Virus record (IMG/VR): IMGVR_UViG_3300042987_004038
Location: 1-64,000 of that record
Source: a virus
Reading direction: 5' to 3' (one strand)
Length of the DNA stretch: 64,000 bases
A program made the position numbers and the translations under genes. Of this stretch, positions 15,681 through 52,613 are shown in pieces (position 1 is the first letter of the stretch; the number at the start of each line of letters is the position of its first letter). The notes under the pieces are model-generated. The model ran no database searches and had not been told where the DNA came from. It saw nothing but the letters and a program-made list of their open reading frames with translations.

Positions 15681-15893
15681 ATGGAGCCGGAGACCGAGAT
15701 ACCAGGGCTGATTGCGATCAGCGAGACACACAACCCGGGCGGCGGGTCGACGTTCACCTTCGAGATCGAGGATGACAAGGTGGACCAGTTCTTTCAGGCC
15801 TTCGGTCTCCAGCCCGGCGATCAGGAGGGATTCCAGCGGGTGGTGATCGAAGCGATTGAAGCGATGATCGCCCGCGGAGCGAGGAACCAATGA
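15681..15893 (+). CDS. Hypothetical protein
   Basis: 70 residues after GGGAGGCGCG. Beta-alpha layout (TFTFEIEDDKVDQFFQAFGL) followed by a helix (EGFQRVVIEAIEAMIARG). Its stop overlaps the next start by 4 nt (ATGA). Confidence 0.66.
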   Translation: MEPETEIPGLIAISETHNPGGGSTFTFEIEDDKVDQFFQAFGLQPGDQEGFQRVVIEAIEAMIARGARNQ

Positions 15894-16309
15894 CTGAAGA
15901 GAAGGACAAGGCGCTGTGTGCCAAATACCCAAAGATCTTCCGTAACAGGCGGGGTGATCCGAAGCAGACGCTCATGTGCTTCGGCTTCGAGCATGACGAC
16001 GGCTGGTATGACATCATCGACACCCTGTGCCACACAATCCAGCATCACCTTGACTGGAAGCGCGGGATGGACGAGTTCAAGTCTCTGCCCGACGAGGCGT
16101 GGGATGAGAGTCACCAGACGGTCGCTGTGCAGGTGAAGGAGAAGTGGGGCGGGCTCCGCTTCTATGTGAATAGCAGCGACCACTACATCGACGGCGCAAT
16201 CGCTCTCGCTGAATCGCTCAGCCTCAGAACCTGTGAGATCTGTGGTTCACCTGGGAAGCCCCGCGGCGGGGGCTGGGTTCGCACTCTGTGCGACGGTCAC
16301 TTCAAGTGA
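15890..16309 (+). CDS. Conserved phage protein with Cys/His C-terminus
   Basis: 139 residues. The layout KYPKIF..., MCFGFEHDDGWYDIIDTLC, VKEKWGGLRFYV and a C-terminal CEICG...LCDGH is a pattern recurring in many phage genomes and annotated only as hypothetical. The last Cys/His residues probably bind zinc. Role unknown. Confidence 0.75.
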   Translation: MTEEKDKALCAKYPKIFRNRRGDPKQTLMCFGFEHDDGWYDIIDTLCHTIQHHLDWKRGMDEFKSLPDEAWDESHQTVAVQVKEKWGGLRFYVNSSDHYIDGAIALAESLSLRTCEICGSPGKPRGGGWVRTLCDGHFK

Positions 16310-16315
16310 TAGGAT
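16287..16315 (+). promoter_or_regulatory. CGTGCG-class promoter for 16337, variant
   Basis: TGTGCG, 17 bp, TAGGAT, one mismatch at each box. Confidence 0.55.
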
Positions 16316-16336
16316 AGATGTAGGAAGGGAGGTTCC

Positions 16337-16675
16337 ATGAACTTCAGGATGTCGAAGATGGCTGAGGGGATCCTGGTGGTCGAGGTGGAGGACAGGGACA
16401 CCGGGCCCATCGTCGACCGGCTCTCTGACCAGAACCACGGCTATGCGATCCGCGGCATCGAGTCCCCCGTGGCAGTGATCGACGGGCGGATCAGCAAGAA
16501 GAAGTGGTGCACTCCCGACCACCTGCTGGCGATCGAGGCCCACGAGCTGGGTCACATCCTCGCTGACACGGATGACGAGCCCACCGCCGAGCGGAAGGCG
16601 ATTGAGATCCTCGAGGAGCACGGCTTCATCGGCGCCGCACAGATCCTGCGAGAGCGCGGTGTCCTGGTAGAATAG
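16337..16675 (+). CDS. Putative HExxH zinc metallopeptidase
   Basis: 112 residues. EAHELGHIL places HELGH at residues 69-73, and Glu81/Glu85 (DDEPTAERKA) can give the third ligand, as in small zincins. The fold is short for a full protease, but similar small phage zincins exist. Substrate unknown; an anti-host or maturation role is possible. Start ATG after GGGAGGTTCC. Confidence 0.68.
   Translation: MNFRMSKMAEGILVVEVEDRDTGPIVDRLSDQNHGYAIRGIESPVAVIDGRISKKKWCTPDHLLAIEAHELGHILADTDDEPTAERKAIEILEEHGFIGAAQILRERGVLVE
16645..16673 (+). promoter_or_regulatory. CGTGCG-class promoter for 16693, variant
   Basis: CCTGCG, 17 bp, TAGAAT with upstream TGG, in the end of the previous gene. Confidence 0.6.
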
Positions 16676-16692
16676 GGTCACGGAGAGGAACA

Positions 16693-17136
16693 ATGCTCAA
16701 GATCTTGCTGACCGCCGGTGAGATGAACCAGGTGAAGGCGCTCCTCGACGGAGGCTACCGCAACAAGATCGAGGCGATCAAGGTGGTCCGCGGCGCCTCC
16801 CGTCACCAGACCGCTGACCTCTTCGATCCGTCCAGGATGCGGCCGGGCGTCGGACTGAAGGAGGCGAAGGAGGCGGTCGAGACGCTGATGGCTGACATGG
16901 GCATGAAGCACCCCGACGGGTCCCCTGCCCTCCACCCCGCGAACCCCTCGGGCTGCATCGTCCCCTTCCAGCCGATCAAGAGCATCACCGTCAACATGGG
17001 CGGCGGTGATGTGGTCGTCGACATGGAGGAGATGGCGCTCAAGTTCAGCGAAGGCCTCACCTCCCTGCCCCTCGCCGATGTGAAGCGCCTCTTCGACCTC
17101 TGGCAGAGGATCAAGGACTGGGAGGACGGGAAGTAG
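16693..17136 (+). CDS. Protein with ribosomal L7/L12 C-terminal-like segment
   Basis: 147 residues. NKIEAIKVVRG (24-34) followed by GVGLKEAKEAVETL (52-65) copies the two signature pieces of the L7/L12 C-terminal domain, with a 17-residue insertion between them. The rest has a beta-rich middle (SITVNMGGGDVVVDM) and a helical end. L7/L12 recruits translation factors; a phage mimic could act on host translation, but this is inference. It may simply share the small alpha/beta fold. Confidence 0.6.
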   Translation: MLKILLTAGEMNQVKALLDGGYRNKIEAIKVVRGASRHQTADLFDPSRMRPGVGLKEAKEAVETLMADMGMKHPDGSPALHPANPSGCIVPFQPIKSITVNMGGGDVVVDMEEMALKFSEGLTSLPLADVKRLFDLWQRIKDWEDGK

Positions 17137-17140
17137 AGCC

Positions 17141-17169
17141 CGTGCCTCTCCTGTCACACATGGTAGAAT
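17141..17169 (+). promoter_or_regulatory. CGTGCG-class promoter for 17188
   Basis: CGTGCC, 17 bp, TAGAAT. Confidence 0.72.
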
Positions 17170-17187
17170 AGGATCATGGAGGACAGA

Positions 17188-17319
17188 ATGGACAACGTCA
17201 TCTCGGGTTTCCACCAGCTCATGAACGTCGATCACATCGCCTGGTCCGATGGTCCCGGCTGGCTCCTCGCCCTTGTGATTGGATGGGTCGTGATGCTCGC
17301 GGTCGCGGCGCGAGCCTGA
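17188..17319 (+). CDS. Small membrane peptide
   Basis: 43 residues: polar first half, then WLLALVIGWVVMLAVAARA as one membrane span. GGAGGACAGA leader. Confidence 0.6.
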   Translation: MDNVISGFHQLMNVDHIAWSDGPGWLLALVIGWVVMLAVAARA

Positions 17320-17350
17320 TACATTAGCCCGCGGGGCGGTAGGATGTGGT

Positions 17351-17662
17351 ATGCTATCGATCGGTGCAATTCTCTGGGGAGTCATTGTCGTCTGGGACAT
17401 GTGGCGGGCGCTGCGGGCAAATGATCCCACCTGGGCCCTCATCCTCCGCGGGTGTTGGTCCCTGTTCACAGTGCTCCTGATCTCTGGGGGCTGGAGCCTC
17501 ACCTTCCTGCTTGCCAATGTTCTGCTGTACTCAGCCACCCTCGTGATGGTGGGTTTGTCGCTCTTGGTGATGCCACCTCCGACAGCCCGCGACATGGCCC
17601 GGGTGGTGATGGAGATCGGACTTGCAATCGCTTTCGCAGCGCTCTGCTGGGCGCTCAGCTAA
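17351..17662 (+). CDS. Multi-span membrane protein
   Basis: 103 residues with three or four hydrophobic segments (about 3-18, 30-46, 48-73, 86-102). Weak ribosome site (GGTAGG). Could be a holin-like or an accessory membrane protein; no further evidence. The next gene follows after 10 nt. Confidence 0.62.
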   Translation: MLSIGAILWGVIVVWDMWRALRANDPTWALILRGCWSLFTVLLISGGWSLTFLLANVLLYSATLVMVGLSLLVMPPPTARDMARVVMEIGLAIAFAALCWALS

Positions 17663-18005: not shown

Positions 18006-18389
18006 ATGAGAATCACAGCATCGCAGTTGAGAAAGATCATCAAGGAAGAGCTGAGTAGAGCGGTGAATGAAGGCTACCGTGCTTTTACACCAGTTGAGAG
18101 TCTGGTTGATTATTTTTTCAGGTATCCCATGTTTGTGGAGCGTCTTGGTCTTCGCCCTCACGATTACAGAGATCCCGACCTTGGCAGTCGCATCGCCGCG
18201 TGGATGAAGAGTAGCGATGAGTTCTTAGGTTATGAGCCCGAGGAATACGATGAGGCTGCGATGGAGATCGCCCTCCGGCTCGGTGATCAGTTCCGCGGTA
18301 GCGAAGAGGGAAGGGCGGCATTCAAGCGCATGAAGAGCCACTACGAGCGTGACATCGAGGATCCATACGGTCCTGAGTCAGACTACTAA
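18006..18389 (+). CDS. SQLR-tag protein 1, candidate virion-packaged protein
   Basis: 127 residues. The N-terminus MRITASQLRKIIKEELSRAV is shared with six other proteins up to 24284, while the rest differs completely. The tag is a basic amphipathic helix with an (I/L)-x-E site (I-K-E), the type cleaved by T4 prohead protease. By analogy with T4 internal proteins it may target the protein to the capsid. The remainder is acidic, helical and unrecognised. GAGGAGATCGA leader. Confidence 0.7.
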   Translation: MRITASQLRKIIKEELSRAVNEGYRAFTPVESLVDYFFRYPMFVERLGLRPHDYRDPDLGSRIAAWMKSSDEFLGYEPEEYDEAAMEIALRLGDQFRGSEEGRAAFKRMKSHYERDIEDPYGPESDY

Positions 18390-18400
18390 TCCTATCACTA

Positions 18401-18440
18401 GGGCGCCACGGACCGCAGGAGATGCGATCTGGCGGCGCCC
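18401..18440 (+). other. Inverted repeat in short gap
   Basis: GGGCGCC and GGCGCCC, 26 nt apart, in the 135-nt gap 18390-18524; GCGATCTGGCG also occurs twice there. Possible terminator or regulatory fold. Confidence 0.35.
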
Positions 18441-18524
18441 GATGTGCATCACGGGGTTGGGATCCCGATGCAAGGGGCGCGATCTGGCGCTGACCTGGGC
18501 CATAGATAGAAGGGGAGGCACAAG

Positions 18525-18773
18525 ATGGCGATTGAGACAGGGACGGCGGTGAGAACAGCATCACCCGACAAATGGAAGACATGGGGCTGGATAAACATGA
18601 ACGGAGAGATCCGTCGCGCGTTGCTAGAGCCAGACAGGATCTACACTGTGACAATCGCTTCTTCTCGATTCAAGAAGGCTGATGGAACTTACCAGTCTGT
18701 GACCAAGATGACCTGTCCGGTGACAGGTGTCGAGCTAATGGCTGAGAGATCTACGATCGTCGAGGATATGTAG
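18525..18773 (+). CDS. Hypothetical protein
   Basis: 82 residues after GGGGAGGCACAAG. Beta-rich (IYTVTIASSRFKKADG), with a single Cys in MTCPVTG. It lacks the SQLR tag although both neighbours have it. Its last codons form the ATATGTAG box of the next gene. Confidence 0.65.
   Translation: MAIETGTAVRTASPDKWKTWGWINMNGEIRRALLEPDRIYTVTIASSRFKKADGTYQSVTKMTCPVTGVELMAERSTIVEDM
18766..18773 (+). promoter_or_regulatory. ATATGTAG box, candidate late promoter
   Basis: ATATGTAG ends 18 nt before the ATG at 18792; it includes the stop codon of the previous gene. Confidence 0.45.
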
Positions 18774-18791
18774 CCAGAAAGGAGATAGACC

Positions 18792-19376
18792 ATGAGAATC
18801 ACCGAGAGCCAGCTTCGCCGCATTGTCCGCGAGGAGCTAAATGAGATGCGGAAGTCTGGCATCACGCTTCGCGTCAACCCAGAGACAGGCGAGTACGAGG
18901 AATCAGGGCTGGAGGATTTCCCAGGCGCCGGAGCGGAGCGAGCCCGCTACCAGAAAGCATCCCAGCATATGTTCAGGCGACCCAAGATCACTGACCCTGA
19001 CCTGGGCGACAAGTTCGAAAGGATGATGGCGAGCCTCGACCTAGATGAGCCAGGGGAATACCTGCCATCGATGTTCACAGGCACTGCGGCTGACAATGTC
19101 GCTCGGTTCAATGACGAGATCTCCAGCAAGCTTCCCATGAAGGGAAGCATGTTTAAGCCTGCCAGGGGCTCAGTCAAAACTGATGACTTTGTTGGAACAT
19201 ATGAGATCAAACGAGTTCCGGGCGAGCCTGAATTGTTCGAGGCTAGCGTGATGAGAGGCGAAGATCCTGACACTGAAGCTGGTGTCGCCTCCGCTGATAC
19301 ACCCTACGAAGCCGTTATGAATGCCGTCGAGAATGCGAGCTACGGTCGCGGATCACCCTTCTACGGTAGCTTCTAA
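18792..19376 (+). CDS. SQLR-tag protein 2
   Basis: 194 residues. Tag MRITESQLRRIVREELNEMR with V-R-E and E-E-L at the possible cleavage site. The body has no recognised motif: a Gly/Glu-rich linker, DPDLGDKFERMMAS (compare DPDLGSRIAAWMKS in protein 1, so the two bodies share a short piece) and a beta-rich end (VGTYEIKRVPGEPELFEASV). Function unknown. Confidence 0.7.
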   Translation: MRITESQLRRIVREELNEMRKSGITLRVNPETGEYEESGLEDFPGAGAERARYQKASQHMFRRPKITDPDLGDKFERMMASLDLDEPGEYLPSMFTGTAADNVARFNDEISSKLPMKGSMFKPARGSVKTDDFVGTYEIKRVPGEPELFEASVMRGEDPDTEAGVASADTPYEAVMNAVENASYGRGSPFYGSF

Positions 19377-19384
19377 CTCCACCT

Positions 19385-19406
19385 CGGGCCCCGTCACTGG
19401 GGCCCG
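19385..19406 (+). terminator. Hairpin terminator
   Basis: CGGGCCCC, GTCACT loop, GGGGCCCG: 8-bp stem, 9 nt before the next -35. Confidence 0.7.
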
Positions 19407-19415
19407 ATCTGTGTT

Positions 19416-19444
19416 CGTGCGCTGACACCTCCAGATGGTATGAT
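19416..19444 (+). promoter_or_regulatory. CGTGCG-class promoter for 19465
   Basis: CGTGCG, 17 bp, TATGAT. It follows an SQLR-tag gene, so the two promoter classes are interleaved here. Confidence 0.77.
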
Positions 19445-19464
19445 GGTGAGGTAAGGAGGAAAGA

Positions 19465-19584
19465 ATGACCACCGACACCGCCATCTGGGGCACCGTCTCG
19501 ATCGCCGGCTCTCTCTTCATCGCCAATGTCGCAGCCCTCGTCTACCTCTCCGGGATCTGCCCGCTGATCAGCTGCCTCAACTGA
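19465..19584 (+). CDS. Tiny membrane peptide
   Basis: 39 residues: one long span (VSIAGSLFIANVAALVYLSG) and a short end with two cysteines (CPLISC). AAGGAGGAAAGA leader. Confidence 0.58.
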   Translation: MTTDTAIWGTVSIAGSLFIANVAALVYLSGICPLISCLN

Positions 19585-19588
19585 GGCC

Positions 19589-19617
19589 CGTGCGATCGTC
19601 GGCTGACATGGTAGAAT
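19589..19617 (+). promoter_or_regulatory. CGTGCG-class promoter for 19642
   Basis: CGTGCG, 17 bp, TAGAAT. Confidence 0.75.
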
Positions 19618-19641
19618 AACCTCACAACCAAGGAAGACAAC

Positions 19642-19905
19642 ATGGCCGCCACCGAAGAGCAGATCGATCTCCACTCCTTCCACTCCGACGTCTACAAGGA
19701 GGTCTACAACATCCGGCCCCGCTGGCTCCGCCCGGAGGACCGGACGGTCGAGGAGTGGCGGTGGATGATCAGCCTCATGATCGAAGAGGGGCAGGAGATG
19801 GCCCGCCGCGAGGCTGAGCACGAGGCTGCTCACCGGGCCTGGGTGGCTGAGGTCACCGATCCCAGCCCGCTGCGGGTCCCGCTGGCCGCCTTCATGGTGG
19901 GCTGA
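19642..19905 (+). CDS. Hypothetical helical protein
   Basis: 87 residues. Helical, Glu/Trp-rich (EEWRWMISLMIEEGQEMARR). Not recognised. Confidence 0.66.
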   Translation: MAATEEQIDLHSFHSDVYKEVYNIRPRWLRPEDRTVEEWRWMISLMIEEGQEMARREAEHEAAHRAWVAEVTDPSPLRVPLAAFMVG

Positions 19906-19909
19906 GACC

Positions 19910-19938
19910 CGTGCGCCTCGGGCGCTGAATGGTATGAT
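19910..19938 (+). promoter_or_regulatory. CGTGCG-class promoter for 19974
   Basis: CGTGCG, 17 bp, TATGAT; last copy seen in the window. Confidence 0.77.
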
Positions 19939-19973
19939 GGTGAGGCAAGGAACCACAGACCAAGGAGCTCAAC

Positions 19974-20297
19974 ATGGCCGCTGCAAACCTCCGCTGGACC
20001 TTCAAGATCACCTCCGTCACGACCTCGCCCCTGGGCACCACCGCGGTCTCCGGCATCGCCCGCGGCCCCGAAGGCCAGGAGCACCGCTTCGTGGCCACCG
20101 ACCGCATGGACCCCCGCTACCCGACCCGGTTCAAGGTGAACTGGAACGGGCTCCTCCCCCGGATGCCGAAGCCCGTCGGCCACGGTGTCCCCGAGGCCAC
20201 CCTGTCCGTGACCGAGGGGCACGACCCGGAGCTGCTGATCGGCCGCGGCGGTCGGGTGGCGATCGCCCGGATGTGCAAGGAGCTGGTCCACGGCTAG
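19974..20297 (+). CDS. NLRW-family protein, copy 2
   Basis: 107 residues, near-identical to 8362 in the middle (DRMDPRYPTRFKVNWNGLLP) with a differing N-terminal strand pattern and C-terminal tail. The shared leader AAGGAACCACAGACCAAGGAG shows that the copy included its regulatory sequence. Function unknown. Confidence 0.75.
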   Translation: MAAANLRWTFKITSVTTSPLGTTAVSGIARGPEGQEHRFVATDRMDPRYPTRFKVNWNGLLPRMPKPVGHGVPEATLSVTEGHDPELLIGRGGRVAIARMCKELVHG

Positions 20298-20787
20298 GGG
20301 CTGGGCAGGGGGCACTGCCGCCCTGCTTCTGCAGTACAGCTGCCCACCCTGCTGCCCCGGGCTGGGCAGGGCTGTATTGGAAGCATCGGTGCCCCCAGAG
20401 GGCAGGGGGCGCCCTAGCCCCACCCCAGGAGGGGGGCTGGAGGGGGCGCCCGGGGTGCCCGCCCTGGGGTCCCAAGCCCACCGGGGCCCCCTGCAGGGCG
20501 GCAGGGCCGCCCAAGGCTCCGCCGACCGCCCGGAAATTTTCCGACCTAACCAAGTCCCTGCCAGTTCCCGGATCGCTGAATTTTCCCCCTTCCCGCGATC
20601 TCCCGAAAATTTCCCGGGAAAATTTGACCCGAAGGGCCCCTCGCCCACGTCGCCTGCCGAGGGCTCTCGCGCGAGCTCAAAAATCTGGACCGAGAGAATT
20701 TTGGGAATCGAAAGTGGGCCCAAAAATTTCCCGGGAAAAATAGGTCACTTTTTGAGCTTTGATATGTAGTAGTACTGGAACTAGATC
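20298..20787. other. Gene-free interval with G-runs and AATTTCCCGGGAAAA palindromes
   Basis: 490 nt with no believable gene. The first 220 nt are extremely GC-rich, contain GGGCTGGGCAGGG twice (20301 and 20360 areas) and four G-runs at about 20430-20468 that could form a quadruplex. From 20530 the sequence turns AT-rich, with GGAAATTTTCC, AAATTTCCCGGGAAAATTT (about 20605-20625) and a second AATTTCCCGGGAAAA (about 20724-20740). The layout would suit a replication or regulatory site; no such function is shown. An ATATGTAG box lies at its end. Confidence 0.5.
20762..20769 (+). promoter_or_regulatory. ATATGTAG box, candidate late promoter
   Basis: ATATGTAG ends 18 nt before the ATG at 20788. Confidence 0.45.
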
Positions 20788-21780
20788 ATGAGACTAACAG
20801 AGTCAGAGATTCGTCAGTTAATTCGTGAGGGACTTTTCGGGAGCGATACACCTGATCAGGAAGATGTCAAGCGCAAGATTCGAAAGTCATTGCCCGCGAG
20901 TGTGGTTGACAAGATGGAATCAAACATCCAGCGGATCAAGCTAGGAAATCACCTCCGGTTCTATAGATGGTTCAAAGACGAGTTTGGCGCGCTTGCTGAT
21001 ACTCGATTTCAGATTGATCCCAGTCTTCTAGGCACCCTAGCGGGTGGCGTCGCCAAGGACTATGTTCTCATTGGAAAAAAGCCCGATCCCGAGGATGCAG
21101 GAGTTGTGAAGGAGCTAATTGATGCCGCAGCAGCGGCACCCGATGTGACAGGAATCAGCTGGTTCATGGGCACTTGCTATCGCGGCATGGTGATGCCCGC
21201 TCTGAGATTCATCAAAGGAGTGGATGCGTCAGCATTCGAGGAAAGCAAGGAGGAGCCTGGTTGGTTCTCCGACCCAATTGGTAGATTTCGGGGCGAGACA
21301 ACCTTATATCCCATGGTATCAAACTACTACGATTTTGCGAAGAGAAAGCAGCAGGACTTCTTCGTCTCATTTAGCACGAAGCGGAGCACTGCACGTAGCT
21401 TCACCGAGGAAGATCACGCTTATGGCTTTTGGGCTCGGGCCGCAGCAGAGTCGGGCCGAGAAAACGTTGAGGTCGTGAACCCGTTGTTTGAGTGCCGGCC
21501 CCTTAGCGCAGGCGCTGTATTGGATCCTCGTGTTCGGGCTAAGACGATCGACCGAGAGATGAATGAGGGCCTCAATGAGGTTCTTGGCTGTCCTTACATC
21601 GACAAGAACATTCAGATTGATCGGATATTCATTCCCTATGAGAGCCTTGAGAAATCGATCGAGAAATTTGGGCGCGGGAAGCTAAAGTCTTACAGGGAAA
21701 AGCTCGACGAGAGACGCATTCGAACATACATAGTGGGTGAAGATCTCGTAATTGATCGAAGAGATTTTATAAATAAGTAG
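20788..21780 (+). CDS. SQLR-tag protein 3, ADP-ribosyltransferase-like
   Basis: 330 residues. Tag MRLTESEIRQLIREGLFG. The body has CYRGMVMP (Arg132) and FVSFSTKRSTARSF (192-205), which match the Arg and Ser-x-Ser core of the ADP-ribosyltransferase fold; EMNEGLNE (about 257-264) could hold the catalytic Glu. T4 packs such enzymes (Alt) in the head and injects them to modify host RNA polymerase; tag plus fold suggests a similar role. The fold call is from motifs only. No clear Shine-Dalgarno is seen. Confidence 0.6.
   Translation: MRLTESEIRQLIREGLFGSDTPDQEDVKRKIRKSLPASVVDKMESNIQRIKLGNHLRFYRWFKDEFGALADTRFQIDPSLLGTLAGGVAKDYVLIGKKPDPEDAGVVKELIDAAAAAPDVTGISWFMGTCYRGMVMPALRFIKGVDASAFEESKEEPGWFSDPIGRFRGETTLYPMVSNYYDFAKRKQQDFFVSFSTKRSTARSFTEEDHAYGFWARAAAESGRENVEVVNPLFECRPLSAGAVLDPRVRAKTIDREMNEGLNEVLGCPYIDKNIQIDRIFIPYESLEKSIEKFGRGKLKSYREKLDERRIRTYIVGEDLVIDRRDFINK
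21773..21780 (+). promoter_or_regulatory. ATAAGTAG box, candidate late promoter
   Basis: ATAAGTAG ends 18 nt before the ATG at 21799; TATAAATA, the T4 late consensus, overlaps it just upstream (21769-21776). Confidence 0.5.
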
Positions 21781-21798
21781 GAATATCGAGGAATTCAC

Positions 21799-22383
21799 AT
21801 GAGAATCACACACAGCCAGCTGAGAAGGATCATCAAGGAGGAGGTCTTTCGAGGGCTTCGTGAGATGTCAATGCATGGTGAAGAAAAATCTTCTGGTGGC
21901 GACATTGTTACCATGATCGCTGATGAGCTTAGGTCTGATCTTGAGATGGACCCGGATCTAATGATGTCAGCCCAGATAGCCCTCGAGATGTTCACAGATC
22001 CCGATGCTTATGAGGAGCGCTCAAGACAAGAGAGGCGTCAAGCCTCCTTCTTTGTCGATGATTACATTGGATCAAGACTTTCTAACTACGAAATATTCGA
22101 AGAATCTGAGATTGCCAAGTATGTTCCCAAGATACTAGGTCATGTTCTAGGTGCTCCTGTCGGGAGTGGGCACAGCCAGGATGAGATCGAGGATCGTGCA
22201 AGAGAGTTTGTGAACGATCTAGATGCCTGGGAGCTAGAGAGCGACATCATGAGTGATATGGCGGGAGGCGCTCCTGTCCCGCGGCACCTGGCATCGCGCT
22301 GGGGTGACTGGTCTCCTGAAGAGATTCAGGCAGTCATTGATCTTGTTATGGACATGAGTACAGGTCGTAGAAGGCGCATGTAG
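21799..22383 (+). CDS. SQLR-tag protein 4
   Basis: 194 residues. Tag MRITHSQLRRIIKEEVFRGL. The body is acidic and helical, with runs of Glu/Asp (EIEDRAREFVNDLDAWELES) and a basic end (GRRRRM). GAGGAATTCAC leader. No domain recognised. Confidence 0.7.
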   Translation: MRITHSQLRRIIKEEVFRGLREMSMHGEEKSSGGDIVTMIADELRSDLEMDPDLMMSAQIALEMFTDPDAYEERSRQERRQASFFVDDYIGSRLSNYEIFEESEIAKYVPKILGHVLGAPVGSGHSQDEIEDRAREFVNDLDAWELESDIMSDMAGGAPVPRHLASRWGDWSPEEIQAVIDLVMDMSTGRRRRM

Positions 22384-22395
22384 CTGTTGTTCTCC

Positions 22396-23001
22396 ATGCA
22401 TAGATCCATGCAGATCCTTCGCCAGCTGATCCGTGAGCAAATCGAGTCGTGGAGCGCGGCGTCCGGCGCGGCGATCGCGTTCTTCTCGCCCTTTCCTGAT
22501 TACATCGTCTTTGTCGCGTATGATGTCCAGTCTCTGAACGGCGCCCTCTTCGGTGATATTGAGAAGCCCACTGTCTATTCGACCCTGTATCTCTATTCCG
22601 ATCCTTTTGAGCATTGCAACGGTGCTTTCCAGGTTTCTCGCGCCGACTCAAGTGTGCCTCGTGCTGGCTGGGGCTCTGATGTGCATCTCGCCGCAATTGG
22701 TACTTTGGGGACCGTCATGCCTGATCGGCACTCAAACACAGTCGCGAGCACACGAACCTGGTTGTCTCTCATCCGGCGCAATCTGATTGTGGGTGAGCCA
22801 CTGCCAGATGTGTGCCTGGGCGATGAGATCGACGGGGTTCGTGGATATGAGGAGCCGGCGCTGAACATGTCATATAGCCTCGCTGGTTCTCTTCCTGCAC
22901 ACGTGATGGAGATGCTGGAGCTCGGCCAGGCACATCGAAAAAAGATTGAGGAATCTGAGCTTCTTGAGCTCGCGCAGGATCTTCTGGTTGGTCGCGTGTG
23001 A
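22396..23001 (+). CDS. SQLR-tag protein 5, GWG/MPDR family
   Basis: 201 residues. A diverged tag, MHRSMQILRQLIREQIESW. The start is uncertain (TTG 22387, ATG 22396 or ATG 22408; none has a good ribosome site). The body has a CNGAFQV strand, GWGSDVHLAA and VMPDRHSN...TRTWLSLI, a layout resembling a family of small phage proteins that carry GWGPLLYD and MPDR motifs, possibly of acetyltransferase-like fold. Function unknown. Confidence 0.62.
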   Translation: MHRSMQILRQLIREQIESWSAASGAAIAFFSPFPDYIVFVAYDVQSLNGALFGDIEKPTVYSTLYLYSDPFEHCNGAFQVSRADSSVPRAGWGSDVHLAAIGTLGTVMPDRHSNTVASTRTWLSLIRRNLIVGEPLPDVCLGDEIDGVRGYEEPALNMSYSLAGSLPAHVMEMLELGQAHRKKIEESELLELAQDLLVGRV

Positions 23002-23027
23002 CCTGCTTAATGAATCAGAGAATCAAG

Positions 23028-23035
23028 ATATGTAG
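23028..23035 (+). promoter_or_regulatory. ATATGTAG box
   Basis: ATATGTAG 26 nt upstream of the ATG at 23062; spacing differs from the 18-nt set. Confidence 0.35.
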
Positions 23036-23061
23036 ACCTATCCACATTGGAGAGATTTAAG

Positions 23062-23490
23062 ATGAACAGGCTTACACAAGGAAGGCTTCGTCAGATTATC
23101 AAAGAAGAAGTAAATTTTGCATTACGAGAAGTCGAAGATGAGGATCCTCCTCTTGGCGATCTTGTGATCAAACGAGCGGATCTAAATGTCGAATACAATG
23201 ACGCCGAAACAAGCTCACAAGAGGCAAACATTGAAGTCAATTTTACTTGGATGGACTCACCGGGAGAGGCAGTAGTCTTGATTACTTCTTTTACAGTAAA
23301 TTCAAGATATGTTGTTGAGAGAATAGCAGAAGAGATCAATTACTCCATTAATTACATGGAAGATACTGAAAATAAAGATTTTGTTAGTGCTCAAGACGTA
23401 AAGATGGCAATGGGGAGGAAGCTTGCTCAATTAATGAATGAGATTGAGCAGCTACAGGAAGAATACGAACAGCAAGCTCGTTATTTATAG
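23062..23490 (+). CDS. SQLR-tag protein 6
   Basis: 142 residues. Tag MNRLTQGRLRQIIKEEVNFA. The body is acidic with a beta-rich middle (VNFTWMDSPGEAVVLITSF) and a C-terminal coiled-coil-like helix (LAQLMNEIEQLQEEYEQQ). ATG 23062 after GGAGAGATTTAAG. AT-rich, unlike tag proteins 1 and 2. Function unknown. Confidence 0.68.
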   Translation: MNRLTQGRLRQIIKEEVNFALREVEDEDPPLGDLVIKRADLNVEYNDAETSSQEANIEVNFTWMDSPGEAVVLITSFTVNSRYVVERIAEEINYSINYMEDTENKDFVSAQDVKMAMGRKLAQLMNEIEQLQEEYEQQARYL

Positions 23491-23501
23491 TCCAGGATGT
23501 T

Positions 23502-24284
23502 ATGAAAATGATAGTTTCAAGAACAAATCTCAGAAGAATAATAAAGTCAATCTTGCTCGAAGGAGAAAGCGAAGATTTTTCTTTTAAGTACGGACCTGGA
23601 GAATGGCTTGAAAATCTTGACAAGCCATCTGGATTTGATTATTACGGCGATGTTTTTTATAACTGCTCAAATTTTTATGATGATATGTCAAAATATTTTT
23701 CAGAAAATTCTTTTTATTCAAAAAAGAGCCAATTTGAAAGTGATTTGAAAAGGCATACTGGAAAAATATTAATGCTTACTGACAATATCAAGCAATATGA
23801 TTTTACCAGTGATCCAATTACTCTCACATGGAAAGAAGACGATTCAAGGAGATTTAAAAAGCACCCAAGCCATGGAAATGATCGAGGCATCTGGGTTTCA
23901 ACATATTCTACAATTTTTGATAAACGTATTGAAATTTATCAAATAAAGGGATTCAACAAGATAAAAGAATTTCCTGATGATGCTTATGATTATGAAATAG
24001 AAATGAATAGAATTGATAAACCTGGATCAATTATAAAGATGAGATTAGACATTATTCTAGATAGAATCTTAAATGTTAGAAGCCTTCAGGTAAAGTTGGA
24101 AGGTGTTGGTCACCAAACGATAAACAAGACAGGACCTTTTTATGAAAAAATTATCTCTATGAATCCGGAGATAGCAAAAGATCCACGTGGTCCGCTTGCA
24201 TACCCGTCAAATATTGCTCTTCACGCCCTAGTTATGACTTCCATTCCAGGTTCGAGTCTCTTTGAAATTATCAGGGGTTTATGA
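23502..24284 (+). CDS. SQLR-tag-like protein 7
   Basis: 260 residues. The start MKMIVSRTNLRRIIKSILLE keeps the LRRII core but lacks the K-E-E end. The body is rich in Asp, Lys and aromatic residues, contains KHPSHGNDRGIWVSTYSTIF, and ends with a helix. No family recognised. Ends 6 nt from the convergent gene at 24290. Confidence 0.62.
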   Translation: MKMIVSRTNLRRIIKSILLEGESEDFSFKYGPGEWLENLDKPSGFDYYGDVFYNCSNFYDDMSKYFSENSFYSKKSQFESDLKRHTGKILMLTDNIKQYDFTSDPITLTWKEDDSRRFKKHPSHGNDRGIWVSTYSTIFDKRIEIYQIKGFNKIKEFPDDAYDYEIEMNRIDKPGSIIKMRLDIILDRILNVRSLQVKLEGVGHQTINKTGPFYEKIISMNPEIAKDPRGPLAYPSNIALHALVMTSIPGSSLFEIIRGL

Positions 24285-24289
24285 ATATT

Positions 24290-24667
24290 TCAATAGGCAA
24301 TAAATAGCTTGACAATTTGTCCTGCTACAGAGTTTGCCTCGTCCTCAAAAAATCCTCCTACATCTTTGATGCTTGTACGACCGTAAAATTCATGCTTTCC
24401 TTGTCGCATATGGACCATCTCGTGTGCAATTGATCTGCATATATCGTGAGGATGTCGACCGCACGTGAATATTACAAGTTCGTTTGTGCTTGGGTTGAAA
24501 TATGCGGTTGTTTTTATTCCGTGTTTTTCCTTGTCTCCAGTTAGCAAGACTGAGTAGTCTAGGTCTCCTATTCCAAGGTGGTCGACCGCGAAGAGACAAA
24601 ATTGACAAATAAGCGCAATTGAGTCTGAGTCTTGCCCACAGCTTTTTTCTACAATTACTTTTCTCAT
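24290..24667 (-). CDS. Putative HExxH metallopeptidase
   Basis: 125 residues on the minus strand, one of only two such genes. IAHEMVHMRQG gives HEMVH at residues 82-86, and FFEDEANSVAGQ downstream may hold the third ligand. CQFC and CGRHPHDIC add cysteines. The size and layout resemble small SprT/zincin-like phage proteins. AGGATGG lies upstream of the start. Substrate unknown. Confidence 0.68.
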   Translation of the reverse strand: MRKVIVEKSCGQDSDSIALICQFCLFAVDHLGIGDLDYSVLLTGDKEKHGIKTTAYFNPSTNELVIFTCGRHPHDICRSIAHEMVHMRQGKHEFYGRTSIKDVGGFFEDEANSVAGQIVKLFIAY

Positions 24668-24796: not shown

Positions 24797-25990
24797 TTGT
24801 CAATCTTTCGCGAACATAAAACTTCTGCCGATCGATCTGCTTCAGATCGTTCTCGACATAAGAAAAAGATTGAAAAGGCTATCCGAGATGGAATATCCGA
24901 CATTATCTCTGAGGAATCCATCATTGGCCAAGACGGAAAGAAGAGAATTAAAATTCCAGTTCGAGGCATTAAGGAATGGCAATTTGTCTATGGCGAAAAT
25001 GTCGGACAAAAAAAGATAGGCTCTGCACCGGGTCAGGATATTGAGCAAGGTCAGGTTGTTAGAAAAGGACAGCAGCAAGGTCAAGGCGGCGGAAACAAAG
25101 CAGGAAAGGACAAGGGAGAAGAAGCCTATGAGGTTGAAATCTCTCTTGAAGAGCTTGCTGAATATCTTTTTGATTCTCTAAATCTTCCTGATCTTGACAA
25201 GAAGAAGCTCAAGACAATTATGCAGGAAAAGCCAAAGCGACACGGAACTCGGACAAATGGTATTCCTCCTCGTCTCGACAAAAAGCTTTCTGCAATTGAA
25301 AGAATTAAAAGAAAGGTTGCTGCAAAGAAAGCAGGTGAAATAGAAATTGACCCACAGACCGGAGAAGAGCTTTTTCCATTTCACGAAAATGATCTAAGGT
25401 ATCATCACATTAAGACAAAGCCAAAAGAGGCATCAAGCGCGGTTGTCTTCTTTATGATGGATGTCTCCGGTTCAATGACAAAGGAAGTAAAGTATATTGC
25501 ACGTTCATTCTTCTTTGTTCTTTATCATTTTTTAAGATACAAATATGATAATCTAGAAATAGTCTTTATTTCACACACTACAGAAGCCCAAGAAGTTGAT
25601 GAGGATTCATTTTTTAAGCGGATTGAGTCCGGAGGAACTTACATAAGTTCAGCACCTGTAATGGCAAGAGAAATTGCAATGAAGAGGTTTCACCCTTCTT
25701 CCTGGAACATTTATGCATTTCATTGTACTGATGGTGACAACTGGCCTGAAGACAACTTGAAGGCCAAGAAAGCTTTTATTGAGCTATCTGATATCTCTCA
25801 GATGGTTGGATATTGTGAGATTCTTACTGGTGCAAGATCTGCAGATAACTGGAACGAAGATATAGAAAGAACAATGTGGGGAACACTTGTCCCTATACAA
25901 AGCAATAAGTTTAAGATGAATGTGATAAAGAACTCTCAAGATATCTGGCCTGTCTTTAAGAAGCTATTTGGAGGAGTCGAAAATGTCTAA
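24797..25990 (+). CDS. YeaH/YhbH family protein (DUF444)
   Basis: 397 residues from TTG, preceded by GGGAGC. The N-terminus is basic, residues 85-108 are a Gln/Gly/Lys-rich linker, and FFMMDVSGSMTKEVKYIARS at about 217-236 is the DxSxS metal site of a von Willebrand A fold. This is the layout of YeaH/YhbH, a partner of the PrkA (YeaG) kinase in bacteria. It is followed by SpoVR and PrkA in the order yeaH-spoVR-prkA. Full family length, so probably functional. Confidence 0.88.
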   Translation: MSIFREHKTSADRSASDRSRHKKKIEKAIRDGISDIISEESIIGQDGKKRIKIPVRGIKEWQFVYGENVGQKKIGSAPGQDIEQGQVVRKGQQQGQGGGNKAGKDKGEEAYEVEISLEELAEYLFDSLNLPDLDKKKLKTIMQEKPKRHGTRTNGIPPRLDKKLSAIERIKRKVAAKKAGEIEIDPQTGEELFPFHENDLRYHHIKTKPKEASSAVVFFMMDVSGSMTKEVKYIARSFFFVLYHFLRYKYDNLEIVFISHTTEAQEVDEDSFFKRIESGGTYISSAPVMAREIAMKRFHPSSWNIYAFHCTDGDNWPEDNLKAKKAFIELSDISQMVGYCEILTGARSADNWNEDIERTMWGTLVPIQSNKFKMNVIKNSQDIWPVFKKLFGGVENV

Positions 25991-27287
25991 TTGGACTCTG
26001 GAAGAGCTTGCTGATTGGGATAAGAGAATTTGTGATATCTCTCGTGCAAATGGTCTGAATTGGTACGAGATTGCATATGAGACATGTGATTACTTTGAGA
26101 TGATAGGAAACATGTCATATCATGGCATGCCTTCTCATTTTTCTCATTGGTCTTATGGCAAGTCTTTTGAAAGAACTCACCACATGTACAATGCTGGCGC
26201 AGAAGGATTGCCATATGAACTGATAATCAACTCAAATCCATCAATTGCCTATCTAATGCTTGAGAATCCTTTATATCTTCAGATATTGATCATGGCACAT
26301 TGTGTAGGTCATTCTGATTTCTTTAAAATGAATAGAACTTTTAAAGATACAGATGCTGATAATGTAACTGTAAGATTTAGAAGTGCTCGTTCTAGAATTC
26401 AATCATACATTGAGGATCCTTCTATTGGAATAGAGAGAGTTGAGAAGCTTATTGACGCTTGTCATAGCATTCAGTACCAGGTTGACAGAAGAGGGAGATT
26501 CAGAAAAGAAGAGAGAGATCTAGTTGAATCTTTCTGGAAGAACGATAAGAATACAAAAAAACTTAAGGATAATGAGTCACCTAAGCATCCTATAGCACCT
26601 GAGTATGATCTTCTTCTATTTCTTCAGGAAAATTGTAAAGACCTTAAGCCTTGGCAGAAAGATATAATAGAGATCATTAGGGGAGAGTCGCTCTACTTCA
26701 TGCCACAAATTAGAACAAAGGTAATGAATGAAGGATGGGCGAGTTTTTGGCACTATAGAACACTAAATCAGCTCGACTTACCTGATAGTATGCATATTCC
26801 ATTTTTAAGAATTCATAACTTAGTCCTCAGGCCCTGGGGCGGATCTATCAATCCTTATCATCTTGGATTTGAGCTCTTCAAGAAAATTGAGGAAGAAAGA
26901 GGAATTGAGGAATGTTTCATAGCAAGAGAGGTCCACAATGATGAGTCTTTTATTATGCAATATCTGGATCGAGACATTTGTGAGAAACTTAATCTCTTTA
27001 CTTACTCAGCAAAGCAGAGAAATGGAGATTGGACAATTGATGATCTGTCTGATGAAGACGGATGGAAGGTCTGTCGCCAGACCCTTATAAACAGCGTCGG
27101 TGGAAATAGTATTCCCATCATCTATGTTGATGAAGTAAAAAAGGACACACTAGTCCTTGTCCATGAACATGACGGAAGGGATCTTGAGCTTGATTATGCA
27201 GATAACTGTGTAAAAAATATCAGTGAGATCTGGGGTGGTCCAGTTAAGCTGGTAACTGAAATCGAGGACGAATACTTTGAAATCTGA
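25983..27287 (+). CDS. SpoVR family protein
   Basis: 434 residues; ATG 25983 after GGAGGAGTCGA, overlapping the previous gene by 8 nt. NEGWASFWHYRTLNQLDLP is the SpoVR signature, and WYEIAYETCDYFEMIG and MPSHFSHWSYGKSFE near the N-terminus also match the family. In Bacillus SpoVR is needed for spore cortex; in other bacteria it is co-expressed with YeaG-YeaH in stress. Somewhat shorter than usual bacterial SpoVR. Ends 10 nt before prkA. Confidence 0.9.
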   Translation: MSNWTLEELADWDKRICDISRANGLNWYEIAYETCDYFEMIGNMSYHGMPSHFSHWSYGKSFERTHHMYNAGAEGLPYELIINSNPSIAYLMLENPLYLQILIMAHCVGHSDFFKMNRTFKDTDADNVTVRFRSARSRIQSYIEDPSIGIERVEKLIDACHSIQYQVDRRGRFRKEERDLVESFWKNDKNTKKLKDNESPKHPIAPEYDLLLFLQENCKDLKPWQKDIIEIIRGESLYFMPQIRTKVMNEGWASFWHYRTLNQLDLPDSMHIPFLRIHNLVLRPWGGSINPYHLGFELFKKIEEERGIEECFIAREVHNDESFIMQYLDRDICEKLNLFTYSAKQRNGDWTIDDLSDEDGWKVCRQTLINSVGGNSIPIIYVDEVKKDTLVLVHEHDGRDLELDYADNCVKNISEIWGGPVKLVTEIEDEYFEI

Positions 27288-27297
27288 GAGGTCTAAG

Positions 27298-29223
27298 ATG
27301 GATTTTCTAAAGATCATTAAGCAGCAGAGAAACGAGAGTCAAAAAGAGGCGTGGTCTGGCACACTTGTTGAATATCTTGAGATTCTTCAGAAGAATCCAG
27401 ACGTTGCAAAACTTGCAGCAAGTAGACTATTTGATTCAATTGCATCATATGGCGTTGAATCTATGGAAGAGTCAGATCCTCGTTGTAAGAAGCTTTTTGA
27501 CGGAGATAAGCTGAAGACTTACAAGTACTTCAAGGACGACTTCTACGGTCACGAGAGAGTGATCGCAAAGCTCATGAGATTCCTGAAGTCTGCTTCTCTC
27601 AAGGGCGAGGAGAGCCGCCAGGTCCTCCTCCTCATGGGCCCCGTAGGCTCAGGTAAGTCGGCACTTGCCGATGCCGTGAAGAAGGCTCTTGAGAAGGCTG
27701 CTGATCCTGTCTATCATCTTGAAGGATGTCCTATCCGTGAAGAGCCCCTTCACCTCCTCCCGCGTTCGCTCCGCGACCAGTTTGAAAAGCTCCTCGGCGT
27801 CCACATCGAAGGAGACCTCTGTCCGGTCTGTCGTTACCGACTAATGAACGAGTTTGGTGGAGAGTATGAGAAATTCCCTGTTGTCCGCAGTGGTTTCTCG
27901 CAGCGTGGACGGCGTGGTATCGCAGTGGTCCCTCCGATGGATGCCAACTCCCAGGACGTCTCAGCTCTCATCGGTTCCGAGGACATCTCGAAGCTAGACA
28001 AGTACTCCGAGGACGATCCTCGTGTTCTGAACCTCAACGGTGCTTTCAACGTCGGCAATCGTGGTGTCGTGGAGTTCGTTGAGATCTTCAAGAATGAGAT
28101 TGAGTTCCTCCACACGATCCTCACTGCCACCCAGGAGAAGCAGGTTCCGACTCCCGGTAAGAACTCGATGCTCTACTTCGACGGTGTCATCATCTCGCAC
28201 TGTAATGAATCTGAGTGGAACCGCTTCAAGTCCGAGCACACCAACGAGGCCATCCTTGACCGTGTCGTGAAGATCGAGGTCCCATACGTCCTCGAGCTCA
28301 CGCAGGAAATGAAGATCTACGAGAAGATGCTTCGCAAGTCGGACTTCAAGGCACACCTTGCACCGCACACCATCAAGGTCGCTGCAATGTTCTCGGTCAT
28401 GAGCCGGCTTAAGCCCTCACAGAAGTGTGATCTCCTCACTAAGATGAAGATCTACGATGGTCAGGAGGTTGTTGAGAAGGGTCGCACCAAGAAAGTTGAC
28501 ATAAAGGATCTTAGAGACGAGTCTAAGCATGAAGGAATGGACGGAATCTCTACGCGTTTCATTACCAAGGCAATTGATTCTACCCTTTCAGATTCTGAAA
28601 AGAACTTTATTACTCCAATGCGAGTAGTGGATTCTCTTATCAAGCAGGTGAAGGAGCAAGTAGTCGACGAGGAGAAGAAGAAGCACTATCTTGAGATTCT
28701 CCAGAAGACCATCCGAGAGGAGTACTTAAAGATCCTCGAAGGTGAGATTGCCAAGGCTTTTGTTACCGCCTATGAAGAGCAGGCCCAGAGTCTATTCGAC
28801 AACTACCTTGATAATGCAGAATCTTTCACTACAAAGCAGAAGCTGAAAGATCGAATGACCTCCGAGGAGAGGGAGCCTGATGAGAAGTTCATGAAGGCAA
28901 TTGAAGAACAGATTGGAATTGTTGGATCTTCCCGAGACGGATTCCGAGCAGATGTTACAGCGTATATGTTTGCCAAAGTTCGACGTGGTCAAAAAGTTGA
29001 TTACAAGTCCTATGAGCCGCTCAAGGAAGCAATTGAGAGCTACCTCATTGCAACAGTCAAGGATCTTGCGAGGATTGTTACAAAGTCCAAGAGTCGAGAT
29101 AACGAGCAACAGAAGAAATACTCAGAGATGGTTGAGACAATGGTAAAAGATTATGGGTATACTCCTGATTCTGCAGAGGAGATTATTACATTTGCTGCCA
29201 ACAATCTCTGGAGAGATTCATAA
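27298..29223 (+). CDS. PrkA-like AAA serine protein kinase
   Basis: 641 residues. GPVGSGKS (114-121) is the Walker A of the PrkA AAA domain; CPICREEPLH-type CPIREEPLHLLP, a CPVCRYR zinc-like pair and a C-terminal PrkA kinase-like segment follow. PrkA/YeaG is a serine kinase tied to stress and starvation responses. The part from about 27590 to 28490 has GC-ending codons, while both flanks use AT-ending codons, so the gene looks mosaic. ATG 27298 after GAGAGGTC. Confidence 0.88.
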   Translation: MDFLKIIKQQRNESQKEAWSGTLVEYLEILQKNPDVAKLAASRLFDSIASYGVESMEESDPRCKKLFDGDKLKTYKYFKDDFYGHERVIAKLMRFLKSASLKGEESRQVLLLMGPVGSGKSALADAVKKALEKAADPVYHLEGCPIREEPLHLLPRSLRDQFEKLLGVHIEGDLCPVCRYRLMNEFGGEYEKFPVVRSGFSQRGRRGIAVVPPMDANSQDVSALIGSEDISKLDKYSEDDPRVLNLNGAFNVGNRGVVEFVEIFKNEIEFLHTILTATQEKQVPTPGKNSMLYFDGVIISHCNESEWNRFKSEHTNEAILDRVVKIEVPYVLELTQEMKIYEKMLRKSDFKAHLAPHTIKVAAMFSVMSRLKPSQKCDLLTKMKIYDGQEVVEKGRTKKVDIKDLRDESKHEGMDGISTRFITKAIDSTLSDSEKNFITPMRVVDSLIKQVKEQVVDEEKKKHYLEILQKTIREEYLKILEGEIAKAFVTAYEEQAQSLFDNYLDNAESFTTKQKLKDRMTSEEREPDEKFMKAIEEQIGIVGSSRDGFRADVTAYMFAKVRRGQKVDYKSYEPLKEAIESYLIATVKDLARIVTKSKSRDNEQQKKYSEMVETMVKDYGYTPDSAEEIITFAANNLWRDS

Positions 29224-40102: not shown

Positions 40103-40835
40103 GTTTCATTTTATTGTTCCTGCTTTTAATTGCAGAAAAGAAATTGAGAGTACCCTCTGGTCAATTGTTGGTCAGACTTATAAAAATTGGACTGCAACAA
40201 TAATTGATGATTTGTCAACAGACGGAACTGGAGAGTTTTGCGAAGACTTCTTTAGAAAAATTGGGATGTCTAATAAAGCTAGAGTCATCTATCGGACTGA
40301 AAAATTTGGAGAGACTAAAAACACTGTCGACGTCTGTTCGACATTAGATGAAGATGAGATAGTCGTTAGACTAGATGCAGGAGACTGGATTACAGATCTT
40401 GGTTGCCTCCAGATATTGGATTCAGTTTACGCATCTCATGATCCCGCTGTTTTGTGGACAGCGCACAGATGGGCATGGACAAACCAAAATATTTCTGGAC
40501 CAATTGACCCAAACATTTCAGTGTATGACCAGCCCTGGAGAAGTAGTCACCTAAAAACATTTAGGGTTAGAGATTTCAAGGGTCTTGGCATAAAAAACTT
40601 CCTAGACGAAGAAGGAAACTATATTGTTATAGCTTGTGATCAAGCTGTATTCTTGCCAATGATGGAAAGGGCCAGAAGGAAGGGTCGCCCTCTTGTATTT
40701 CTTCCTATGGTCATGTATCATTACTCAATAGATCTCCATAAGCCTGATCTTTTTACTTGCGACAGATCATTAAGGCAAAAGCAGAGCGCTGAATGGATAA
40801 GATCTCGAGGCTTTATAGATGAGAATACTATTTGA
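40095..40835 (+). CDS. GT2 family glycosyltransferase
   Basis: 246 residues, overlapping the previous gene by 8 nt. FIVPAFNCRKEIESTLWSIV, IIDDLSTDGT and VVRLDAGDWI are the GT2 nucleotide-sugar motifs. The C-terminal part (FLPMVMYHYSIDLHK) is typical for GT2. It uses a nucleotide sugar to extend a glycan; acceptor unknown. Confidence 0.82.
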   Translation: MNKFHFIVPAFNCRKEIESTLWSIVGQTYKNWTATIIDDLSTDGTGEFCEDFFRKIGMSNKARVIYRTEKFGETKNTVDVCSTLDEDEIVVRLDAGDWITDLGCLQILDSVYASHDPAVLWTAHRWAWTNQNISGPIDPNISVYDQPWRSSHLKTFRVRDFKGLGIKNFLDEEGNYIVIACDQAVFLPMMERARRKGRPLVFLPMVMYHYSIDLHKPDLFTCDRSLRQKQSAEWIRSRGFIDENTI

Positions 40836-42970: not shown

Positions 42971-42977
42971 CTAATGA

Positions 42978-43004
42978 GTCTAGCCTACCATGTATCTGCT
43001 AGAC
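42978..43004 (+). other. Hairpin between cluster genes
   Basis: GTCTAGC, 13-nt loop, GCTAGAC: perfect 7-bp stem in the 90-nt gap 42971-43060. It could be a weak terminator or processing site. AAGTATAATTC lies upstream of the next start and may be a promoter -10. Confidence 0.4.
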
Positions 43005-43060
43005 AATGTCTTAAAAATTTTCTCAAAATTAAAGTATAATTCAATGGAAGAGGTCTATCT

Positions 43061-46433: not shown

Positions 46434-46442
46434 GAGAAAATT

Positions 46443-50012: not shown

Positions 50013-50014
50013 AA

Positions 50015-50779: not shown

Positions 50780-50807
50780 TTGTTAAAAACAAGCAAAGAG
50801 AGAAAAA

Positions 50808-51752: not shown

Positions 51753-51775
51753 AGAAATATTGGATATGATTTTTT

Positions 51776-52591: not shown

Positions 52592-52613
52592 AGCTTATTG
52601 TTTGGATAATAAC

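What the first reader, a model, noticed from the sequence alone, without database searches (positions are those of the whole stretch)
18006..24284. Seven otherwise unrelated proteins with one shared N-terminal tag: candidate injected effector set
Genes 18006, 18792, 20788, 21799, 22396, 23062 and 23502 start with M-R-I-T-x-S-Q-L-R-x-I-I-K-E-E-L or a diverged form and differ in the rest. The tag is a short amphipathic helix and contains (I/L)-x-E in most copies, the cleavage rule of T4-type prohead protease. T4 uses a capsid-targeting sequence of this sort on internal proteins, including ADP-ribosyltransferase Alt; one protein here also looks like an ADP-ribosyltransferase. So the region may encode a set of proteins packed in the head and injected with the DNA.
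Basis: partly seen in the sequence, partly recalled or inferred. Interest (0 to 1): 0.88.

Follow-up and report, generated by a model that had tools for sequence, protein, structure and literature searches.

The report
Capsid-packing tag on many phage proteins
A T4-like virus of bacteria, known only from environmental DNA, puts the same roughly 22-residue front end on a set of otherwise unrelated proteins; its own head-building proteins carry that front end too, so it is most likely a label that loads many different cargo proteins into the virus particle.

Summary
The shared N-terminus is real. A profile built only from other viruses' tags ranks six of the seven genes, plus two further genes, as the top eight of 2340 possible starts in the 96.8-kb record; 22396 is not distinguishable from chance. 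The two further genes lie immediately downstream of a T4 gp21-type prohead protease at 92430, outside the window. The first is a conserved neighbour of gp21 (73 of 80 related loci); its N-terminus matches the tag over 24 columns (hhalign E 8e-8), ending in L-x-E-G. Across 136 tags and a separate 180, [LI]xE is enriched just after the tag (z 12.6 and 11.3) while control patterns are not.

The tag is common in uncultured phages (25-30 carriers in the largest records, often in unbroken head-to-tail arrays, 143 body families among 181 bodies) and nearly absent from cellular genomes. In a close relative the flanks are syntenic while most tagged bodies have been replaced.

Best explanation: a capsid-targeting sequence, analogous to but not homologous by sequence with T4's MKTYQEFIAE, that loads a changeable cargo set into the prohead, where gp21 removes it. 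Packaging is strongly inferred; injection is inferred; the ADP-ribosyltransferase claim found no support. No description was found in the searchable literature.

The parts
18006..18389 (+). Tagged gene 1, 127 aa (tag MRITASQLRKIIKEELSRAVNEG, bases 18006-18074)
   Evidence: PSSM 42.0 bits; in relative G132 the tag is kept (80% over 25 aa) but the body is different
18792..19376 (+). Tagged gene 2, 194 aa (tag MRITESQLRRIVREELNEM, LNE|M at residue 18)
   Evidence: PSSM 38.5 bits; homologue in G132, 70% over 89 aa
20788..21780 (+).
   Evidence: PSSM 12.2 bits; no homologue except an identical copy L387; no Pfam/PDB/INPHARED match
21799..22383 (+). Tagged gene 4, 194 aa (tag MRITHSQLRRIIKEEVFRGLREM, LRE|M at residue 22); exact T4-type late promoter word TATAAATA at 21768
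   Evidence: PSSM 37.6 bits; TATAAATA expected 0.05 times in bases 1-22000, found once
22396..23001 (+). Gene 5, 201 aa, starts MHRSMQILRQLIREQIES; tag not demonstrable
   Evidence: PSSM -11.9, inside the shuffled range; included only by position
23062..23490 (+). Tagged gene 6, 142 aa (tag MNRLTQGRLRQIIKEEVNFALREV, LRE|V at residue 23)
   Evidence: PSSM 21.3 bits
23502..24284 (+). Tagged gene 7, 260 aa, diverged tag (MKMIVSRTNLRRIIKSILLEG, LLE|G at residue 20)
   Evidence: PSSM 0.8, above the shuffled maximum of -4.6
18525..18773 (+). Untagged small ORF inside the island
   Evidence: no tag score
19642..20297 (+). Two untagged ORFs (19642-19905, 19974-20297) conserved in relative G132
   Evidence: 54% and 94% identity in L409
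16337..17888 (+). Conserved left flank of the cargo island (ORFs 16337, 16693, 17622)
   Evidence: 77-92% identical and in order in G132
24290..24667 (-). Conserved right flank: small protein with HEMVH zinc-protease-like motif
   Evidence: 72-85% identical beside tagged genes in G132, G131, G136
24797..29223 (+). Conserved right flank: DUF444 (YeaH-type), SpoVR and PrkA genes
   Evidence: Pfam PF04285, PF04293, PF08298/PF06798; synteny

Best explanation
The shared N-terminus is a capsid-targeting sequence (CTS). During head assembly, the amphipathic helix M-[KR]-[IL]-T-x-[ST]-Q-L-[KR]-x-I-I-[KR]-E-E, together with the following few residues ending in L-x-E, associates with the prohead core in the way the N-terminus of the phage's own conserved core protein (gene A, 93039, next to the gp21 protease) does. 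The tagged proteins are thereby enclosed. The T4 gp21-type protease then cuts after the Glu of [LI]-x-E and removes the tag, leaving the bodies inside with the DNA. From there they are most likely delivered to the host at infection, as T4 internal proteins and Alt are. The tag is constant and the bodies are exchanged, so the island at 18-24 kb is a replaceable cargo bay. Shown here: the tag is real and N-terminal, it occurs on a conserved head-module gene beside gp21, the [LI]xE site is enriched after it, the protease is in the same genome, and bodies turn over in a syntenic site. Inferred: physical packaging, cleavage in vivo, injection, and effector function.
For: Protease: the record carries a gp21-type prohead protease at 92430-93035 (phrog_207 E 1.8e-53), a T4-type portal and a terminase. 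Head genes with the tag: the genes directly after gp21 carry tag-like N-termini; in 80 gp21 loci from IMG/VR, 77 of 86 tag-like genes found in 1.16 Mb start within -0.1 to +1.5 kb of the gp21 end. Gene A is present in 73 of 80, with consensus KLSR..LK.IVKECLVEILxEGL in which L20, E22 and G23 are nearly invariant. Tag profile against gene A profile: probability 94.5, E 8e-8, columns 1-24 on gene A's N-terminus. Accessory-tagged genes also lie within about 1 kb of gp21 in several other lineages, and L435 has a protein with the tag in front and a scaffold-like RWKEL end behind. Cleavage site: [LI]xE in residues 16-32 of 136 tags, 99 seen against 40.6 +/- 4.6 shuffled; followed by G/A/S/M 55 against 10.7. 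[VF]xE, [LI]xD and [LI]x[QKR] were not enriched. Repeated on 180 other tags: 103 against 44.7. The major capsid protein keeps LLRE|VNS-type and L[TA]EG sites. Association: tag records of 30-100 kb have gp21 in 17/45, random records in 2/42 (Fisher p 2e-4). All 31 gp21-positive tag records tested have the T4-type portal and none of the 30 gp21-negative viral ones does. Turnover: in relative G132 the flanks are syntenic while five of seven bodies are replaced by other tagged proteins and a sixth keeps only its tag.
Against: No virion proteomics exists for any carrier; only one INPHARED record, a metagenomic huge phage, matched the tag by tblastn. The gp21 association is not significant among records of 100 kb or more (14/15 against 5/8, p 0.10), because large random contigs are often T4-like. 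The tag has no sequence similarity to T4's own CTS (T4 IPII and IPIII score about -54). Part of the [LI]xE signal could come from an amphipathic helix: [LI]xxE is also enriched, though [LI]x[QKR] and [LI]xD are not. Recognised domains are few and mixed (YkuD, FliG_C, SET, Zeta-type kinase, LysM, RMF), so 'effector' is a guess for most bodies. The T4-type late promoter scan was uninformative in the arrays.
Confidence: 0.82

Rival explanations
1. The tagged proteins are prohead core or scaffold parts, packed by the tag and then degraded by the protease like T4 gp22, gp67 and gp68, so they are assembly aids and are not injected.
For: Gene A and gene B beside gp21 look like core components. Some long tagged or tag-like proteins in the head module end in a scaffold-like RWxxLAG motif (L435, L436, L447, L449). 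Gene A has many further LxES sites.
Against: Accessory bodies are extremely varied (143 families among 181), turn over between close relatives, often lie far from the head module, and include enzyme-like domains. A structural core would be expected to be conserved.
Confidence: 0.1
2. The tag is not a packaging signal but directs the proteins to another place in the infected cell (membrane, nucleoid, replication compartment) or is a docking helix for a phage or host protein.
For: The tag is an amphipathic helix (helix 5-44 in the gene A model, pLDDT about 90 over the first 20 residues), which can dock in many ways.
Against: It does not explain the same N-terminus on the gene after gp21, the [LI]xE rule with G/A/S after it, or the presence of tagged genes around gp21.
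Confidence: 0.06
3. The tag DNA is mainly a recombination anchor (a shared 5' end that lets bodies be swapped) or the residue of recent duplication, with little function as a peptide.
For: In eight arrays, codons at identical tag residues agree more often than body codon usage predicts (0.49-0.81 against 0.35-0.50), so tags share recent ancestry. Bodies swap while tags stay.
Against: Codons still vary while residues are kept, tags are conserved across lineages with very different GC, and the cleavage-site pattern is a protein-level signal. This is better seen as how the set spreads than as what the tag does.
Confidence: 0.04
4. Chance or annotation artefact: short charged helices at N-termini look alike.
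For: Helical KEE/REE N-termini are common, and 22396 is within the shuffled range.
Against: A strict pattern expected by my own rough estimate far less than once in IMG/VR gave at least 119 stretches. An external profile ranked these genes top of 2340 starts. Random contigs of 79-348 kb had none or one weak match.
Confidence: 0.01

Closest known systems
Capsid-targeting sequence (CTS) of phage T4 internal proteins IPI, IPII, IPIII and Alt, processed by gp21
   Same: Short N-terminal peptide shared by otherwise unrelated head cargo; ends in an [LI]xE site; T4-type gp21 protease and portal in the same genome; cargo genes lie away from the head genes. The T4 CTS targets proteins into the head, including foreign ones, and is removed there (PMC7697877, PMC9958956).
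   Different: No sequence similarity (T4 MKTYQEFIAE|A is 10 residues, this tag about 22; PSSM about -54). The tag matches a conserved gene beside gp21. Carriers number up to about 30 per genome in contiguous arrays; the reviews name only three IPs and Alt in T4.
N-terminal propeptides of SPN3US and phiKZ-type giant phage head proteins (PMC5694885)
   Same: Many inner-head and ejection proteins carry N-terminal propeptides removed by a prohead protease and proposed to act like a CTS; two SPN3US paralogues share an identical 15-residue start.
   Different: Those propeptides are mostly over 100 residues, use other cleavage rules and are not one short tag on dozens of unrelated proteins.
T4 prohead core proteins gp67 and gp68
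   Same: Small genes directly beside gp21, like genes A and B here; T4 gp67 contains LIKEEKIAIARNFLIEGEE, loosely like the tag with its site.
   Different: In T4 they precede gp21 and have no recognisable tag (PSSM -43 and -31); orthology with genes A and B was not shown.

Membership tests
T4-type CTS system (functional class) | Short N-terminal peptide shared by otherwise unrelated proteins | tested here: met
   internal copies in only 6 of 183 carriers
T4-type CTS system (functional class) | T4 gp21-type prohead protease in the same genome | tested here: met
   phrog_207 E 1.8e-53 at 92430-93035
T4-type CTS system (functional class) | Protease site [LI]xE at the end of the peptide | tested here: met
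   99/136 against 40.6 shuffled and 103/180 against 44.7; statistical, not biochemical
T4-type CTS system (functional class) | Peptide also found on a component of the prohead core | tested here: met
   Gene A after gp21, hhalign E 8e-8; that gene A is a core component is inferred from position and its scaffold-like C-terminus
T4-type CTS system (functional class) | Carriers physically enclosed in the head and cut after the Glu | not testable with these tools
   Needs virion proteomics or a reconstituted prohead
T4-type CTS system (functional class) | Carriers injected with the DNA | not testable with these tools
   Needs an infection experiment; no isolate known
T4 CTS sequence family (MKTYQEFIAE) | Sequence similarity to the T4 CTS | tested here: not met
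   IPI, IPII, IPIII score -52 to -55 on the tag profile
ADP-ribosyltransferase (gene 20788) | Recognisable ART domain or fold | tested here: inconclusive
   No Pfam hit even at E 10, no PDB hit; single-sequence AlphaFold model pLDDT 39.7; only CYRG, FVSFST and NEVL motif-like text by eye

The most novel reading that the evidence does not exclude
Uncultured T4-like phages carry a general protein-delivery system: one tag, shared with a prohead core protein, is attached to dozens of interchangeable proteins per genome (unbroken arrays of about 20 tagged genes in some), so that each virion delivers a large, fast-evolving set of effectors in the way bacteria use secretion-system effector repertoires.
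Probability: 0.5. Interest if true: 0.92.

Novelty: new variant of a known kind. Interest (0 to 1): 0.8.

Why it matters
If true, a simple sequence rule predicts which proteins an uncultured phage packs and probably delivers into its host, opening hundreds of unknown protein families as candidate injected effectors (counter-defence, host take-over). It also suggests a second CTS for protein packaging and makes the T4 idea of injected internal proteins testable in environmental phages.

Tried and rejected
Assembly chimera at the GC drop (60% to 38% near 22-24 kb): rejected, because tagged genes lie on both sides and relatives G132 and G136 show the same shift at the syntenic place. ADP-ribosyltransferase for 20788: sequence searches and a single-sequence fold gave nothing. 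T4-type late promoters (TATAAATA) before tagged genes: one exact match 31 nt before 21799 and one 32 nt before the scaffold gene, but no enrichment in the arrays, so not used as evidence. The tag in isolated phages: one tblastn hit, in an uncultured huge phage; low-complexity filtering could have hidden others. Literature searches for the tag letters and for metagenomic capsid-targeting sequences found no description. Tag records without gp21 as counter-examples: they also lack the T4-type portal, so the head module is simply not on those fragments (positive control).
Full report
WHAT THE WINDOW IS. The window is bases 1-64000 of a 96,830-base IMG/VR virus record. The rest of the record holds the head module of a T4-like myovirus: terminase 87937, portal 89525 (phrog_213 E 1.4e-75), prohead protease 92430-93035 (phrog_207 E 1.8e-53), a scaffold-like protein at 95038, and a major capsid gene starting at 96430 and cut by the record end.

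THE OBSERVATION. Over all 2340 possible starts in this record it ranked 18006, 18792, 21799, 23062, 20788, 93590, 93039 and 23502 as the top eight; the best of 20 shuffles was -4.6. Gene 22396 fell within the null.

THE KEY CLUE. The two additional carriers sit directly after the gp21-type protease. I fetched 80 relatives of that protease with up to 10 kb of flank each side. Of 86 tag-like genes in 1.16 Mb, 77 start within -0.1 to +1.5 kb of the protease end. Gene A (first after the protease in this record) is found in 73 of 80. Its alignment begins KLSRxxLKxIVKECLVEILxEGL, and its end (DLFGESAxKWAxLAF) resembles the scaffold's conserved end (DRWAxLAGxK). The tag profile aligns with gene A's profile over columns 1-24 (probability 94.5, E 8e-8). 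Gene A is predicted as one helix over residues 5-44 (pLDDT about 90 over the first 20). In other lineages accessory-tagged genes also lie just before or after gp21, and in L435 one has the tag in front and a scaffold-like RWKEL end.

THE CLEAVAGE SITE. T4 gp21 cuts the N-terminal peptides off internal proteins and Alt, 65 residues off the capsid protein and 10 off gp24 (PMC9958956); the T4 sequences read here fit [LI]xE, for example MKTYQEFIAE|A, MAKINELLRE|S and FLTE|AE. In 136 tags the triplet [LI]xE occurs in residues 16-32 in 99 cases against 40.6 in shuffles, with the Glu peaking at residues 18-19 and 21-22 and A, G or S most often next. In 180 other tags the numbers are 103 and 44.7. [VF]xE, [LI]xD and [LI]x[QKR] are not enriched. 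[LI]xxE is enriched in the second set (z 7.6), partly because LLxE satisfies both, so I do not claim that all of the signal is cleavage.

ASSOCIATION AND ITS LIMITS. Among tag records of 30-100 kb, 17 of 45 have the protease against 2 of 42 random records (p 2e-4). At 100 kb and above it is 14 of 15 against 5 of 8, not significant. All 31 protease-positive tag records tested have the T4-type portal; none of the 31 protease-negative records searched (30 viral, one cellular genome) does. That is what fragments would give; no head module without the protease was seen. In 84,980 bacterial and archaeal genomes the strict tag appears on four contigs; two of the three genomes concerned encode a gp21.

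SCALE. With a tag HMM, single phage records carry up to 29 matches while random records of 79-348 kb carry none or one weak match. In 20 fetched stretches there are 183 tagged genes, many head-to-tail (21 within 10.5 kb in L389; 126 of 163 gaps between -10 and +60 nt), with 143 body families among 181 and 123 singletons. Six proteins carry a second tag-like stretch inside, as if two tagged genes had fused. Few bodies have known domains: YkuD, FliG_C, EF-hand, DUF6321, Zeta-type kinase, SET, LysM, ribosome modulation factor.

TURNOVER. In relative G132 (protease 88% identical) the left flank (15890-17622, 77-92% identity) and right flank (24290 and DUF444, 85-90%) are kept in order. Between them 18792 is 70% identical over 89 residues, 18006 keeps its tag but has another body, and the other five are absent, with unrelated tagged genes in their place. 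Two further relatives carry tagged genes beside the same 24290-DUF444-SpoVR-PrkA block. This is a cargo island at a fixed place.

MECHANISM. The simplest account is a capsid-targeting sequence: the tag helix joins the prohead core as gene A's N-terminus presumably does, gp21 cuts after [LI]xE, and the body stays in the head. In T4 such proteins include the injected anti-restriction protein IPI and Alt (PMC9958956), so delivery to the host is the likely fate, but nothing here tests it. The main rival is that tagged proteins are core parts that are degraded; body diversity and turnover speak against it.

KNOWN OR NEW. It works like the T4 CTS but is not a member of it by sequence. I found no description of the tag in the searchable literature; subscription papers were not searchable.

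Noticed in passing
window 24797-29223: A phage-borne DUF444 (YeaH-type), SpoVR and PrkA kinase trio, conserved at 78-90% in relatives, beside the cargo island.
   Followed up: partly
L457 (LR756508.1, 150000-164000): The gp21 protease of this 484-kb phage matches in two pieces about 1.1 kb apart, each within an open frame of the same length, suggesting an intein-like insertion; tag-like genes follow it.
   Followed up: partly
L389:5107-5895, L402:16097-17155, L400:7492-8115, L398:8984-9277, L404:9975-10280: Proteins with a second, internal tag, as if two tagged genes fused into a polyprotein that the protease could separate.
   Followed up: partly
window 1-22000 against 24000-64000: GC falls from about 60% to 38% within one phage genome; relatives show the same shift, so it is not an assembly error.
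   Followed up: partly
window 38264-55015: A long run of genes between structural genes that from their sequence look like sugar-handling enzymes (glycosyltransferase, epimerase and methyltransferase types); no family search was run on them.
   Followed up: no
L424-L451, just before gp21: A small protein (MELxxFxLCAYGLTQILVY...CPMCxGFxxG) next to gp21 in many lineages; function unknown.
   Followed up: no
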